From: Methylomonas rapida
GTDB lineage: Bacteria; Pseudomonadota; Gammaproteobacteria; Methylococcales; Methylomonadaceae
Direction of reading: 5' to 3'
Assembly: GCF_024360925.2 (NCBI RefSeq)
Contig: NZ_CP113517.1
Location: forward strand, 124,001 to 188,000
DNA length: 64,000 nucleotides
The notes under the pieces are model-generated. The model was not told where the DNA came from. It worked only from the letters and a program-made list of their open reading frames with translations, and did not search any database. Of the stretch, positions 16,136-54,681 are shown piece by piece (within the stretch, counting starts at the first letter, position 1; the number at the start of each line of letters is the position of its first letter). Position numbers and translations under genes: made by a program.

Positions 16136-17146
16136 TCAGGGTTTTTCCCTGGCGACGTCCTGTTCCAGAAAAGTGTCGATCGTTTGGCTGTCGTTGAAAT
16201 GGGCGAAAGCCAGCGCCAGTTTGGCGTAGGCGGTTTCCAGTGAGGTGTTCCAGATCATCTTGGCGCCGTGGCTCAATATGTCACGGGTGGAGCTGTAGGC
16301 CGCGTCCGATTGAAGCGAGGGGGCCAGATACAAAGGTATGTTGGCTTCCCGGCAGCGCTGGCTGAAGTCGATCAGGCTGTGCTGCGGCCCCCATTGCCGC
16401 GAGACGCAGGCCGTGCCGGAGTGATAGAGGTCGTGCAGCACGGCGTCCACGCCATGTAGGTGGTAATCGGCGTAGTTCATGCCGGGGTAGGGGCGCAGCA
16501 AGAGTATGCGGGCAAATTGGTTTTTTAACGTATGGGTCGGGGCTTCGGGCGGCGGGAGCGGATGCAACTGCCTGAATTTCCCGTCGGCATAACTCAGGTA
16601 TGCTCTGGATTGCACGCTGATGAAGTCGCCACTGAGCGGCAGACAGGAACTCAGGCGGGTGCCGATATGCACATGCATGGTTTGCTCAGGATTTTGATAC
16701 GGCACGAACACGCCGGCTTCCTGCTTTTGCAGGATGTAATCGACCGCGCAGATGAAGTTTTTCAGGCCGTTGGCTTCAGGATTATCCAGCGGCAAATTGC
16801 TGGAGACCAGTAGCAGCGGAATCTTCAGGTGGTTGAAATAAACGCCGAACGCCGCGGCGGTAAAGGCCAGGGTATCGGTGCCGTGGGTGACGATGATGCC
16901 GTCGAAATCAGCCAGCTCTTCGGTTTCTATCGCAGCAATGACTTGCTGCCAAAACGTGGGGTGCAGGTTTTCGCTGAGGATTTGTATCGGCTGCAGCGTT
17001 TTGAAGCGAACCCGCGCCTGTGCCGGATGGCATTGTTGAAACAGCTGAATCAGCTTGAAACCGGCAGTGGCGCGGGTGTCTATGGTGCCGTTTTCCACTT
17101 GCGAGCCTATGGTGCCACCGGTAAAAACCAATAATATGTTCGTCAT
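16136..17146 (-). CDS. L-asparaginase (type I-like)
   Basis: 336 aa. The N-terminus I-L-L-V-F-T-G-G-T-I-G-S carries the first catalytic Thr (F-T-G-G-T-I), and V-T-H-G-T-D-T-L (about residue 90) carries the second Thr-Asp pair. These are the two asparaginase signatures. The enzyme hydrolyses asparagine to aspartate and ammonia. No signal peptide is seen, so it is probably cytoplasmic, like AnsA. The start was set at the ATG directly before T-N-I-L-L-V-F; upstream in-frame codons give an unrelated extension. Divergent from folA, 50 bases apart. Confidence 0.9.
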   Translation of the reverse strand: MTNILLVFTGGTIGSQVENGTIDTRATAGFKLIQLFQQCHPAQARVRFKTLQPIQILSENLHPTFWQQVIAAIETEELADFDGIIVTHGTDTLAFTAAAFGVYFNHLKIPLLLVSSNLPLDNPEANGLKNFICAVDYILQKQEAGVFVPYQNPEQTMHVHIGTRLSSCLPLSGDFISVQSRAYLSYADGKFRQLHPLPPPEAPTHTLKNQFARILLLRPYPGMNYADYHLHGVDAVLHDLYHSGTACVSRQWGPQHSLIDFSQRCREANIPLYLAPSLQSDAAYSSTRDILSHGAKMIWNTSLETAYAKLALAFAHFNDSQTIDTFLEQDVAREKP

Positions 17147-17196
17147 AAAATAGTAAGATGAGCGCCTTTGCGTAAGGCGCATCTTAATCTGAAACC

Positions 17197-17724
17197 ATGA
17201 AAATTTCATTGATCGTGGCGATGGCCAGCAACCGTGTCATCGGTTTGAATGGCCGGATGCCGTGGCATCTGTCGGCCGATTTACAACGTTTCAAACACAT
17301 CACGCTGGGCTCGCCCATTCTGATGGGGCGTATAACCTTCGAGGCGATCGGACGGCCGTTGCCGGGACGGGAGAATCTGGTCATCAGTCGCAATGCCGAT
17401 TACCGGCAGGACGGCTGTCAGGTGTTTACCACGATAGACGGCGCGCTCGAGTATGCGAAAAGTTGCGAGGAATTGTTCGTGATCGGCGGCGCCACGCTGT
17501 ACGAGGCTTTGTTGCCGGCGGCGGACTATTTGTATTTGACCTTGATCGAGCGCGATTTCGACGGCGACACTTTTTTTCCGGAAATCGATTACGGCGCCTG
17601 GCGCGAGCTCAGCCAAGAGGTGGTCGAAGACGACCCGCGAGTCGATTATCGCTATCGGTTTTTAAAGCTGGAAAACCTGTATAAGGAACGAACATCGAAT
17701 AACCTATGCAAATATTCGGGGTAG
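17197..17724 (+). CDS. folA: Dihydrofolate reductase
   Basis: 175 aa. M-K-I-S-L-I-V-A-M-A-S-N-R-V-I-G, then M-P-W-H-L-S-A-D-L-Q-R-F-K (Asp27 equivalent of E. coli), I-L-M-G-R-I-T-F-E-A-I-G-R-P-L-P-G-R and V-I-G-G-A are all DHFR hallmarks. It reduces dihydrofolate with NADPH for thymidylate and one-carbon metabolism. The final ~15 residues (E-R-T-S-N-N-L-C-K-Y-S-G) run into a palindromic repeat whose first bases supply the TAG stop. A 7-bp hairpin (GCGCCTT/AAGGCGC, 17162-17180) lies in the leader. Confidence 0.96.
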   Translation: MKISLIVAMASNRVIGLNGRMPWHLSADLQRFKHITLGSPILMGRITFEAIGRPLPGRENLVISRNADYRQDGCQVFTTIDGALEYAKSCEELFVIGGATLYEALLPAADYLYLTLIERDFDGDTFFPEIDYGAWRELSQEVVEDDPRVDYRYRFLKLENLYKERTSNNLCKYSG

Positions 17725-24862: not shown

Positions 24863-25029
24863 ACCTAGAAATATCATTTTGTCCACGAAACACACGAAAA
24901 TCACGAAAAGTTTCAAGCAGTTATCTCACCTAAGAACAGCACCGAACTGGTGAGCCGACAAGCCTCATAACGCAATGATTTCTTTCGTGTATTTCGTGCT
25001 TTTCGTGGACTTGCTGCGGTTTTAAGGTT
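24862..25029. repeat. CACGAAA element, copy 1 (between phoU and erg24)
   Basis: A 168-bp element with inverted ends (AACCTAGAAA and TTTTAAGGTT) and internal inverted arms of the type TCCACGAAACACACGAAAAT / TTCGTGTATTTCGTGCTTTT. The core contains ACCGAACTGGTGAGCCGACA. Copies occur at 29126-29298 and 46170-46341, a partial copy at 26998-27040 and a longer variant at 54378-54681. Both neighbouring genes end at its edges: TGA of phoU at one end and TGA of erg24 at the other. It may fold as a bidirectional transcript end. Confidence 0.8.
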
Positions 25030-26312
25030 CAGTAGAGTTTGGGCACGATTCGCCACGGCACCCGTGAGCGGTAGCGTAGCCAATCCTCGCCGTACTTCGC
25101 CAGGCACATGGCATCGTCTCGCCGCTCCCGATGCAGCAGCAGAATGGTGAAGTAGAGCATATGGAAATAAGGCAGAGGGCTGCCGAAAGCGGCCGGCAGG
25201 CACCAGGAAAGTGCGATCAGCAAATCGCCGAAGTAATTCATGTGTCGCGCAAGGCCCCACCAGCCCGAGGTCAGCAACAACGAGCCCCGGTTTGTCTTGA
25301 TGTATTCGGCCGGGCGGCCCCAGACGGCTCGGTTCGGATCGCGCCGGAAATGGTGTTTCTGGATGTTGGCACCGCGAAATATCGCATAGCCGGTCAGGTT
25401 CAAAATCAGGATGGCTGCAGTTCCCCAGACAGGAAGGTCATGGGTGTGGTTGACCAGATATTGAGCTTGTAGCGTATAGGTGAAGGGCAGCCAGACCAGA
25501 TCGCCCCAGCATAGCATCCAGCCGAATTTTTCATGCTTGATGTCCCATGTCGTCAGCACGGCTTCTTCGTGGATAAAGTAGTCGATCAGGTAAGCGCTTT
25601 GAAAGCCGACCACCAGCAGCATCGGCACGCTCACGACGCCATGAAGTTCATATTGTTTGGCCGCCATCGACAGATTCATGAGCATCCAGAAGATCATGCC
25701 CGGACGAGCTTCGCAGAAGAGCTTCAGGTCGAGGGAACCTATCCGCGGATTGAGCGCCGTACCCATGAAGTAGTCATACAAGGGCCGTCCCGTCGGCCTC
25801 TCCCAATCCGCGCCCCGCAGTCCCCAAAAATAAAGAAAGCCGGCGAAGGCGAACGTAAAGATATTGACCGTGCCGAGCAGCGGACCGAGCTGGTCATACA
25901 AGACCGTGGCATCCAGCCAGCCCAAAGCCAGCAGAGTGGCTACCAAGCCCAGTGTGAACAGGAAGGAAAACATGCCGTTCATCCGGTAGTCGAGCCGGCT
26001 GCCATCGGGTAATGCCATGCCCTGTACGGTCTGGCCGGGAGCCCAAACCTGCAAGGCCGCCTGGAGCAGGAACCACGCGCCGTAGAGGCTCGCAGCTTCC
26101 CAGGTGGGAGGCGAGACGTGGGCGAAAAATTGCTGCCAGGACGCGGTATCGGTGGGAAACACCAAGCGGCCTTGATAATAGGTGACGCAAATCCAGAGGT
26201 AATACACTAGCGGCGGCAAGGCCACCATCAGCACGAGCCAGGAAAGGCCGAAACCGTATTTTTGCCGCACAGCATCCACGGCGCGGGTTGTCATCAAATC
26301 TTGATCGTCCAT
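25029..26312 (-). CDS. ERG4/ERG24-family sterol reductase (delta-14-sterol reductase type)
   Basis: 427 aa polytopic membrane protein with about eight or nine hydrophobic segments. The family signature L-L-T-S-G-W-W-G-L-A-R-H-M-N-Y-F-G-D is present, and the C-terminus C-L-A-K-Y-G-E-D-W, Y-R-S-R-V-P-W-R-I-V-P matches fungal, plant and animal C14/C24/C7 sterol reductases. Family members use NADPH to reduce a sterol double bond. Homologues exist in sterol-making methanotrophs and in Coxiella. Substrate position (C14, C24 or other) cannot be read from sequence. It follows the ERG2-like gene by 20 bases, so the two are surely co-transcribed. The 3' end touches a CACGAAA element. Confidence 0.9.
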   Translation of the reverse strand: MDDQDLMTTRAVDAVRQKYGFGLSWLVLMVALPPLVYYLWICVTYYQGRLVFPTDTASWQQFFAHVSPPTWEAASLYGAWFLLQAALQVWAPGQTVQGMALPDGSRLDYRMNGMFSFLFTLGLVATLLALGWLDATVLYDQLGPLLGTVNIFTFAFAGFLYFWGLRGADWERPTGRPLYDYFMGTALNPRIGSLDLKLFCEARPGMIFWMLMNLSMAAKQYELHGVVSVPMLLVVGFQSAYLIDYFIHEEAVLTTWDIKHEKFGWMLCWGDLVWLPFTYTLQAQYLVNHTHDLPVWGTAAILILNLTGYAIFRGANIQKHHFRRDPNRAVWGRPAEYIKTNRGSLLLTSGWWGLARHMNYFGDLLIALSWCLPAAFGSPLPYFHMLYFTILLLHRERRDDAMCLAKYGEDWLRYRSRVPWRIVPKLY

Positions 26313-26332
26313 TGGTCACCCTTTTGACCGCT

Positions 26333-26902
26333 TTAGAATTTTCGATTGATCATCAGTTCGCGTAGCGCCATTTTGCCGTACGTCCATACCGTCTCGGCCA
26401 GCGTCGTTCCGTCGACAGCGCTGAATACAACGTCGCCAAGGATCAGCGGGAAGGCGGCGGGGATAAAACCTCTGCCATATTCCAGCATCCAGGCTGAGTC
26501 TGGTATTTTGAAACCATTGACCTTGCCGCGTTCGAGGACGGTATGATCGCCCGGACGAACGACTTCGCGCACCCCGCAATGGTTTGGCCGGTAAGTCCAG
26601 ATTTCACCGGCCATCAGAAAATCATGGATATCCATGCGGTAGCGCCCGGAGAAGCCTTCCGTGCCGACCGGCGTCCCGAAGATGAGCAGATATTCGCTGA
26701 AAGAAGCGTGGAGTATGGTCATTACCCCGGTAGCGCCCGCCGTCAGACTAAAAAGCCAGCGCCGGGGCTGGCTGGCGTCGATATGGGCGGGGTAGGCCTT
26801 GGCGCAGGCTTCCACCACGGTTTTGACCATGTCTTCGTGGGGTTTGCCCATTCCTTGCAAGGCGATGGCTTGCAGCGTCTCGATGTCGAACACATAGCGC
26901 AT
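26333..26902 (-). CDS. ERG2 / sigma-1-receptor family protein (sterol C8 isomerase type)
   Basis: 189 aa. Strong stretch-by-stretch resemblance to ERG2 and the sigma-1 receptor: H-A-S-F-S-E-Y-L-L-I-F-G-T-P-V-G-T-E-G-F (65-84), S-G-R-Y (85-88), D-x-x-D-F-L-M-A-G (91-99), P-D-S-A-W-M-L-E-Y-G-R-G-F-I-P (134-148) and a C-terminal helical D-V-V-F-S. Asp94 and Glu141 correspond to the two acidic residues of the ligand/active site (Asp126 and Glu172 in human sigma-1). The N-terminal membrane helix of the eukaryotic proteins is absent. Yeast ERG2 moves the C8 double bond to C7. GGTGGA precedes this ATG. Paired with the ERG24-like gene. Confidence 0.88.
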   Translation of the reverse strand: MRYVFDIETLQAIALQGMGKPHEDMVKTVVEACAKAYPAHIDASQPRRWLFSLTAGATGVMTILHASFSEYLLIFGTPVGTEGFSGRYRMDIHDFLMAGEIWTYRPNHCGVREVVRPGDHTVLERGKVNGFKIPDSAWMLEYGRGFIPAAFPLILGDVVFSAVDGTTLAETVWTYGKMALRELMINRKF

Positions 26903-26936
26903 AAATTCCACCCGCGTGAGACTGAGAGGTTTTTTA

Positions 26937-26997: not shown

Positions 26998-27040
26998 ATC
27001 CCAAAAACGGCAGTAAGTCCACGAAAAGCACGAAATAAAT
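26998..27040. repeat. Truncated CACGAAA element
   Basis: CCCAAAAACGGCAGTAAGTC and CACGAAAAGCACGAAAT match one terminus of the element at 29126-29298, after which the match ends. It lies in the 304-base gap between the divergently placed erg2 start and the pit stop; the rest of the gap (27041-27206) shows no gene. Confidence 0.65.
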
Positions 27041-29125: not shown

Positions 29126-29298
29126 TTGAACCCCAAACCGGCAGCAAGTCCACGAAAAGCACGAAATACACGAAAGAAATCATTGCGTTATGAGGCTTGT
29201 CGGCTCACCAGTTCGGTGCGGTTCTTTGGTGGATAACGGTTTGAAATTTTTGGTGATTTTCGTGTATTTCGTGGGCCAAATGATTTTTCTAGGTTGAA
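29126..29298. repeat. CACGAAA element, copy 2
   Basis: In reverse orientation to copy 1. Ends TTGAACCCC and TCTAGGTTGAA, arms TCCACGAAAAGCACGAAATA and GATTTTCGTGTATTTCGTGG, core GCTTGTCGGCTCACCAGTTC. It lies in the 426-base gap between the start of the DUF47 gene and the end of the methyltransferase gene. The remainder of that gap shows no gene. Confidence 0.8.
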
Positions 29299-46169: not shown

Positions 46170-46341
46170 TATCCTAGAAAAAATCATTTGGTCCACGAAG
46201 CACACGAAAATCACGAAAAGTTTCAAACAGTTATCACCCCAAAGAGCCGCACCGAACAGGTGAATCGACAAACTTCATAACGCAATGATTTCTTTCGTGT
46301 GTTTCGTGATTTTCGTGGAATTACTGCCGTTTTTAGGTTTA
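46170..46341. repeat. CACGAAA element, copy 3 (between two c-di-GMP genes)
   Basis: ATCCTAGAAAAAATCATTTG and TTTTTAGGTTTA ends, arms TCCACGAAGCACACGAAAAT and TTTCGTGTGTTTCGTGATTT, core CACCGAACAGGTGAATCGAC. Same orientation as copy 1. It occupies most of the 334-base gap between the divergent starts of the cyclase and HD-GYP genes, so both promoters must lie close to their starts or within the element. Confidence 0.8.
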
Positions 46342-54379: not shown

Positions 54380-54681
54380 ACCTAAAAACATCAATAGCCC
54401 ACGAAATACACGAAGGCAGGCAATGGGGGCTCTGAAAGTCATAATGAATCAAGCGGCGGAACACTTGGAAAAAGCTAACGCTTTTTCACTCCAACATCAC
54501 GCGGGGGAGTGCGATGGCTTTAGCTATCGCATTCAGTGCAAATCTTTCCGGCTTGCTCGTTTTCTCCCGGTAGAGGTGACTTTCTTTTTACGGGGTGTTG
54601 CGGCACTTTCATGATCGTTCTTCGCCTGAGCTCAGGACAGGTTTTGTGTATTTCGTGGACCAACATCTTTTCCCAGGATAA
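54378..54681. repeat. CACGAAA element, expanded variant (copy 4) between cobU and cobT
   Basis: Ends AAACCTAAAAACATC and TTTTCCCAGGAT resemble the termini of the other copies, with arms CCCACGAAATACACGAAGG and TTGTGTATTTCGTGGACC. The interior is different and about 130 bp longer. It includes a GTGCGATGGC-TTTA-GCTATCGCA hairpin (54509-54531) of the family seen at 737 and 15976. No gene is supported in it, although a short frame from 54423 exists. The right end touches the cobT start. Confidence 0.6.

What the first reader, a model, noticed from the sequence alone, without database searches (positions are those of the whole stretch)
26333..26902. Bacterial ERG2 / sigma-1-receptor homologue
The 189-aa protein matches eukaryotic ERG2 and the sigma-1 receptor through nearly its whole length, including GTPxGTEGxSGRY and the two acidic ligand residues (Asp94, Glu141). 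It lacks the N-terminal membrane anchor. ERG2 proteins are otherwise a eukaryotic hallmark, and bacterial sterol C8 isomerases are barely described. It may let the cell make delta-7 sterols, or act on another terpenoid.
Basis: partly seen in the sequence, partly recalled or inferred. Interest (0 to 1): 0.85.

Follow-up and report, generated by a model that had tools for sequence, protein, structure and literature searches.

The report
Methanotroph ERG2-type sterol isomerase gene
A methane-eating bacterium carries a close relative of the yeast sterol-editing enzyme ERG2 and of the human sigma-1 receptor, right beside a sterol reductase gene, so it may make a second kind of sterol; the gene is real, but such a gene has already been mentioned in print for a related genus.

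Summary
26333-26902 encodes 189 aa matching Pfam ERG2_Sigma1R almost end to end (E 1.4e-51). Its AlphaFold2 model (pLDDT 91.8) matches sigma-1 receptor structures (TMq 0.91-0.93). The motif and D94/E141 are present; the N-terminal anchor is absent. Twenty bases downstream lies a C-14 sterol reductase, ERG24. The genome also encodes CYP51-ferredoxin, oxidosqualene cyclase, squalene epoxidase and 8,14-Bsr. Best reading: a C-8 (delta8 to delta7) sterol isomerase acting after ERG24, on a branch beside 8,14-Bsr. Activity and product are not shown. 'Eukaryotic hallmark' is wrong: 41 bacterial genome loci encode relatives, 16 of 41 with ERG24 directly downstream. Lee et al. 2026 (PMC13277303) already state that Methylotuvimicrobium has a C-14 reductase and a C-8 isomerase. 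Added here: the pair in three further genera of the family and in other phyla, its presence in 1 of 37 held genomes of this genus, a shift of one acidic residue that splits the family, and yeast ERG2 grouping with mostly myxobacterial sequences (sparse eukaryote sampling).

The parts
26333..26902 (-). ERG2/sigma-1-family protein, 189 aa, probable C-8 sterol isomerase
   Evidence: PF04622 E 1.4e-51; sigma-1 PDB sequences E 2e-32 to 5e-30; model pLDDT 91.8 matches sigma-1 structures TMq 0.91-0.93
25029..26312 (-). C-14 sterol reductase (ERG24/MaSR1 type), 427 aa, directly downstream with a 20-nt gap
   Evidence: PF01222 E 2e-123; PDB 4quv E 2.8e-262, residues 1-427 on 1-427
26907..26913 (-). GGGTGGA, ribosome-binding-like sequence 4 nt before the ERG2 ATG
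   Evidence: read by eye from the sequence; not tested
26316..26323 (-). AAGGGTGA, ribosome-binding-like sequence before the ERG24 ATG, inside the 20-nt gap
   Evidence: read by eye from the sequence; not tested

Best explanation
The gene encodes an ERG2-type sterol C-8 isomerase that works with ERG24 from one two-gene unit. Inferred route: oxidosqualene cyclase makes lanosterol; CYP51-ferredoxin removes the C-14 methyl and leaves delta8,14; ERG24 (25029-26312) reduces delta14, leaving delta8; ERG2 (26333-26902) moves delta8 to delta7. 8,14-Bsr, encoded elsewhere in the same genome, would compete for the delta8,14 intermediate and give the delta8(14) sterol usual in methanotrophs. Shown by computation: family, fold, adjacency, open frames, presence of the other genes. 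Inferred from the family: sterol binding in the barrel, with two buried carboxylates (E141, D94) handling protonation at C-9 and proton loss at C-7. Inferred: co-transcription, and membrane contact through the C-terminal helices without the eukaryotic N-terminal anchor. The substrate may be a 4,4-dimethyl sterol, since neither of the genome's two Rieske hits looks like SdmA; this step is weak.
For: Family and fold. ERG24 directly downstream on the same strand in 10 of 10 ERG2-bearing genomes of this bacterial family: the window and nine others (ERG24 84-88% identical). In the 41 loci of the genome collection ERG24 is directly downstream in 16: 9 Methylococcales and 7 from Planctomycetota, Myxococcota, Rokuibacteriota and Acidobacteriota. 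All 10 of 10 ERG2-bearing family genomes also encode 8,14-Bsr and oxidosqualene cyclase. Own sterol cluster: CYP51-ferredoxin (PDB 6mcw E 5e-227), OSC (TIGR01787 689 bits against a cut-off of 323), SE. The 8,14-Bsr homologue carries Y37, Y43, Y78, Y80, D133, D136 at the numbers given in PMC13277303. No EBP-type isomerase (PF05241) in this genome or in the two Methylotuvimicrobium/Methylomicrobium genomes tested, so ERG2 is the only candidate of a known kind. E82 of GTEG, kept in 10 of 10 yeasts and 156 of 161 bacterial rows, is G in 7 of 7 vertebrate sigma-1 rows; mammalian sigma-1 is reported to lack isomerase activity (PMC4106346, passage).
Against: No activity, product or expression is shown. 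The D94 arrangement is that of sigma-1, which is not an isomerase; yeast ERG2 rows have F there and an acid at 92 (10 of 10). E82 is not a clean marker: L023, whose locus holds ERG24, CYP51 and OSC, has Q82, and L047, L048 and P0107 have T, L040 R. PMC4919349 (passages) lists one sterol for M. alcaliphilum, which reads in its table as a delta8 4,4-dimethyl sterol, not delta7; the table has no delta8(14) or delta7 column. 25 of 41 loci have no ERG24 directly downstream (several contigs are short). TIGR03463, the OSC model, scores 645 against a cut-off of 851.
Confidence: 0.75

Rival explanations
1. Sterol-binding, non-catalytic protein: like sigma-1, it binds the ERG24 product or stabilises ERG24, without moving the double bond.
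For: D94/E141 arrangement as in sigma-1; mammalian sigma-1 reported without isomerase activity (PMC4106346 passage); tight pairing with a membrane reductase.
Against: Keeps GTEG with E82 as in yeast ERG2, which is G in 7 of 7 vertebrate sigma-1 rows, though E82 also varies in 5 bacterial rows; no EBP in the genome to do the isomerase step.
Confidence: 0.13
2. Sterol isomerase of another regiochemistry, for example delta8 to delta8(14), giving the methanotroph sterol by a second route.
For: Methanotroph sterols are delta8(14) (PMC13277303); the same paper discusses C-8 isomerase orthologues as possible makers of delta8(14) in eukaryotes.
Against: An 8,14-Bsr homologue is present in 10 of 10 ERG2-bearing genomes, so the route would be redundant.
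Confidence: 0.07
3. Enzyme for another terpenoid (for example a hopanoid).
For: The genome also has a squalene-hopene-cyclase-like gene (C1:832601).
Against: Pairing with ERG24 and co-occurrence with OSC in 10 of 10 genomes; PF04622 occurs in only 10 of 237 genomes of the family.
Confidence: 0.03

Closest known systems
Methylotuvimicrobium C-14 reductase and C-8 isomerase (Lee, Giner, Welander 2026, PMC13277303; outline, passages, results part 1 and discussion seen)
   Same: Same two enzymes in related methanotrophs that also carry 8,14-Bsr; the pathway split is stated there. M. buryatense locus L018 has the pair in the same order, ERG2 80% and ERG24 84% identical.
   Different: In the text I saw, that paper names only Methylotuvimicrobium; here the pair is in a species of another genus, with no shared flanking genes.
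Yeast ERG2 C-8 sterol isomerase
   Same: Same family; 34% identity over 188 columns (P0243); GTEG with E82 kept.
   Different: Yeast has an N-terminal hydrophobic stretch (by eye) and an acid at position 92 with F at 94.
Vertebrate sigma-1 receptor (PDB 5hk1, 6djz, 7w2b)
   Same: Same fold, TMq 0.91-0.93; D94 and E141 match D126 and E172; 36% identity to Xenopus over 185 columns.
   Different: No N-terminal helix; keeps E82 of GTEG; lies beside a sterol reductase gene.
MaSR1, PDB 4quv
   Same: The partner gene is a full-length homologue (E 2.8e-262).
   Different: Partner only; not the ERG2 protein.
Enhygromyxa salina ERG2-like proteins (L032, L052)
   Same: Bacterial members, 43% identity for L032; E. 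salina makes cholesta-7,24-dienol (PMC10202945).
   Different: Yeast-like acid arrangement (AEDYF); no ERG24 found in the locus; the genomes also hold EBP-family hits, so which protein isomerises there is open.

Membership tests
PF04622 ERG2_Sigma1R | Full-length profile match above the curated cut-off | tested here: met
   175.3 bits vs 21, profile 21-209 of 210
PF04622 ERG2_Sigma1R | Sigma-1-type cupin-like barrel with two C-terminal helices | tested here: met
   Model pLDDT 91.8, helices 147-162 and 165-186; sigma-1 chains are the first 42 PDB rows
ERG2 C-8 sterol isomerase (function) | GTEG motif with E82, kept in yeasts and G in vertebrate sigma-1 | tested here: met
   GTPVGTEG in the window protein; column counts. 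That E82 is catalytic is my inference, and 5 bacterial rows lack it
ERG2 C-8 sterol isomerase (function) | Yeast-type acid at position 92 (ADDYF) | tested here: not met
   Window protein has I92 and D94, as sigma-1; 153 of 161 bacterial rows have D94
ERG2 C-8 sterol isomerase (function) | Genome encodes the makers of the expected substrate (OSC, CYP51, ERG24) | tested here: met
ERG2 C-8 sterol isomerase (function) | Delta8 to delta7 activity | not testable with these tools
   needs reconstitution or a knockout
Sigma-1 receptor | Acidic pair D126/E172 | tested here: met
   D94, E141
Sigma-1 receptor | N-terminal transmembrane helix | tested here: not met
   residue 2 aligns with Xenopus 35; the listed open frame starts only 3 codons further up

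The most novel reading that the evidence does not exclude
The ERG2 family is a bacterial invention with two catalytic layouts. In one, the second acid sits at position 94 (methanotrophs, Planctomycetota, Rokuibacteriota, many Myxococcota; also sigma-1); in the other it sits two residues earlier, on what should be the same face of the strand (a mostly myxobacterial branch and yeasts). Yeast ERG2 would come from the second bacterial group, and methanotrophs with the ERG2-ERG24 pair would make delta7 sterols beside delta8(14) sterols, so delta7 sterols in sediments need not be eukaryotic.
Probability: 0.3. Interest if true: 0.75.

Novelty: new member of a known kind. Interest (0 to 1): 0.45.

Why it matters
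If active, the protein gives methanotrophs delta7 sterols, a product absent from the columns of the methanotroph table that I saw in PMC4919349 (passages). It would also be an anchor-free bacterial model of the ERG2/sigma-1 fold, useful for asking how an isomerase became a drug-binding receptor. The pair makes one question directly testable: two known enzymes (ERG24 + ERG2) versus one bacterial enzyme (8,14-Bsr) acting on the same intermediate in the same cell.

Tried and rejected
Mobile element bounded by repeats: the pair is flanked by TTTCGTG-type repeats, but these are dispersed in the window (15 matches vs 0.03 expected), so they do not mark the pair.

Shared neighbourhood: open frames of 120 aa or more around the pair were compared between 10 loci (L013-L021, L071) and window 14001-40000 at over 40% identity. 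Flanks are shared only among L014, L018, L019 and L071; L021 and the window share two frames, at window 16139-17721, 7 kb or more from the pair; nothing else. Several contigs are short. In 19 same-genus phoU loci fetched (of 36 other genomes with a PhoU match) no ERG24 follows phoU in the stretch held, up to 1.5 kb, only about 250 bases in L089. This suits transfer or repeated loss; I could not tell them apart.

E. salina as functional proof: its genomes also have EBP-family hits, so its delta7 sterol cannot be credited to ERG2.

One eukaryotic clade: with three rows dropped (L053, L044, L040, all long-branched) the AU test gave p 0.035 against holding the 13 eukaryotic rows together. The group was tested after seeing the first tree and the eukaryotes were only vertebrates and yeasts, so I treat it as a hint. 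The display step of that script failed; no second tree was read.

SdmA and ERG3: PF00355 gave two hits in the genome, a 104-aa Rieske ferredoxin-like protein and a bc1-type Rieske protein beside cytochrome b; that SdmA is a Rieske oxygenase is recalled. PF04116 gave two hits, which match best a model of the ornithine-lipid hydroxylase OlsE, far below its cut-off, so no ERG3 was recognised. The FAD protein beside CYP51 was called DHCR24-like by me from memory; Pfam shows only FAD_binding_4 and no sterol reductase was named.

Methylomonas is my guess, from the genus size and from PMC13277303, where M. lenta makes sterols and M. methanica does not; 8,14-Bsr occurs in 2 of 37 genomes of this genus.

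A note of mine gave four of the 8,14-Bsr residues one number too low; one search corrected it.

Papers searched with no hit used: PMC12004948 (no isomerase passage), PMC12398221 and PMC2478713 (passages).

Full report
Observation. Pfam gives one family, ERG2_Sigma1R, E 1.4e-51, residues 2-186 on profile positions 21-209 of 210. NCBIfam gives none for this protein. The four PDB sequences matched at E up to 1 are all sigma-1 receptors, E 2e-32 to 5e-30. The model built from 31 sequences has mean pLDDT 91.8 and pTM 0.89. Of the 50 PDB rows shown, the first 42 are human or Xenopus sigma-1 receptor, TMq 0.91-0.93, rmsd 1.5 to 1.9 A; the other 8 are cupin-type proteins with TMq 0.40-0.43.

Residues. 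I aligned 161 bacterial rows (the window protein; 119 of the 163 hits, of which 120 were listed and P0002, the window's own near-copy, was left out; and the 41 loci), 7 vertebrate and 10 yeast rows. The hits and the loci partly stand for the same organisms, and the metagenome rows are taken as bacterial without further proof, so the counts are not independent events. E141 is E in 159 of 161 bacterial rows (a gap in one, D in one), 7 of 7 vertebrates and 10 of 10 yeasts; E70 is E in all. D94 is D in 153 of 161 bacterial rows and 7 of 7 vertebrates but F in 10 of 10 yeasts and in 8 bacterial rows: L032, L033, L034, L042, L045, L047, L048 and L052. All eight, and all ten yeasts, have D at 92. Residues 92 and 94 lie on one predicted strand, 90-98, so they should face the same way; that one acid has moved by two residues along the strand is my inference. 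E82 in GTEG is E in 156 of 161 bacterial rows and 10 of 10 yeasts and G in 7 of 7 vertebrates; the five exceptions are P0107, L023, L040, L047 and L048, and L023 lies beside ERG24, CYP51 and OSC, which speaks against E82 being indispensable.

Surroundings. The next gene on the same strand, 20 nt on, is a C-14 sterol reductase: PF01222 E 2e-123, and PDB 4quv, Delta(14)-sterol reductase, E 2.8e-262 from end to end. Both genes have ribosome-binding-like sequences (by eye). On one side lie genes that I read as pstC, pstA, pstB and phoU, on the other strand (PhoU; ABC permease and ATPase domains for pstA and pstB, no Pfam hit at 1e-5 for pstC); on the other side a PHO4 transporter gene.

The rest of the pathway. 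The genome is one contig of 4,592,903 bases. A cluster at C1:4.476-4.488 Mb encodes a FAD-binding protein, a P450-ferredoxin fusion, a 200-aa protein, a squalene/oxidosqualene cyclase and squalene epoxidase. The fusion's best PDB match is Cytochrome P450 51, E 5e-227, over residues 40-565. The cyclase scores 689 bits with TIGR01787 and 645 with the OSC model TIGR03463 (cut-off 851) against 244 with the hopene cyclase model. They are followed by an MMPL-family protein, a phosphonate-type periplasmic binding protein and a TPR protein, which resemble the BstABC sterol transporters (recalled; PMC10942540 seen in the search listing only). The 200-aa protein has Y37, Y43, Y78, Y80, D133 and D136, the six positions studied in 8,14-Bsr of M. 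capsulatus (PMC13277303, results part 1). So this genome can be expected to hold both ways of dealing with the delta8,14 intermediate.

Distribution. PF04622 occurs in 10 of 237 genomes of the family, in 4 of 29 genera. The window's genome is the only one listed from its genus, of which 37 genomes were searched. ERG24 directly follows ERG2 in all 10, and all 10 have 8,14-Bsr and OSC homologues. In the genome collection 41 loci encode relatives: Methylococcales, Myxococcota, Planctomycetota, Rokuibacteriota, Acidobacteriota, Hydrogenedentota, Bdellovibrionota and unassigned bacteria. ERG24 directly follows in 16 of 41 (L013-L021, L023-L028, L030; in L020 only 222 aa of it were matched), lies elsewhere in the locus in 2 (L034, L045), and is not found in 23, several of them short contigs. 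One genus of the four holds M. buryatense (G175, same place as L018), so three further genera carry the pair.

Tree. The ten methanotroph rows form one starred branch (100/100). Seven yeast rows sit with eight bacterial rows on a starred branch (98/90); these eight are exactly the eight rows with F94, six labelled Myxococcota other than L034 (Pseudomonadota MAG) being joined by the two E. salina rows, also Myxococcota. The motif columns are part of the alignment, so tree and motif are not independent. Vertebrate sigma-1 sits near them with weak support (86/49). L053 is very long and its place is unsure.

What is in print. PMC13277303 (outline, passages, results part 1, discussion; [quoted passage not shown] PMC10202945 (parts 1 and 2 of 6 and passages) reports cholesterol in E. 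salina and a C-8 isomerisation homologue in a Calothrix cluster. PMC10152446 (passages) names an EBP homologue in Nannocystis. PMC4919349 (passages) does not name ERG2 among its search queries. In the listings and the passages read I saw no report of a biochemical test of a bacterial ERG2-family protein; supplements were not open to me, and most subscription papers are not in the library.

Verdict. A real, open, well-conserved bacterial ERG2-family gene beside ERG24. Most likely a C-8 sterol isomerase. A new member of a known kind: the precedent in a related genus is in print, the activity is not shown.

Noticed in passing
L043:4190, L046:10001, L049:4926, L050:446: Four Hydrogenedentes ERG2-like proteins follow an N-terminal hydrophobic stretch ending in ITGC or LAGC (three) or CTGC (L043), lipobox-like by eye, so the barrel may ride on a lipid anchor instead of a helix. 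No ERG24, OSC or CYP51 hit in those loci.
   Followed up: partly
window 24884-25007, 27020-27035, 29151-29273, 46194-46317, 54400-54657: Dispersed TTTCGTGnnTTTCGTG repeats, 15 matches with up to 1 mismatch against 0.03 expected, mostly as facing pairs.
   Followed up: partly
L053:10001-10597: Bdellovibrionota ERG2-like protein with a signal-peptide-like N-terminus (by eye), a very long branch and no E at the E141 column.
   Followed up: no
L034 and L045: ERG2, CYP51 and ERG24 lie in one locus in two bacterial MAGs with the yeast-like acid arrangement.
   Followed up: no
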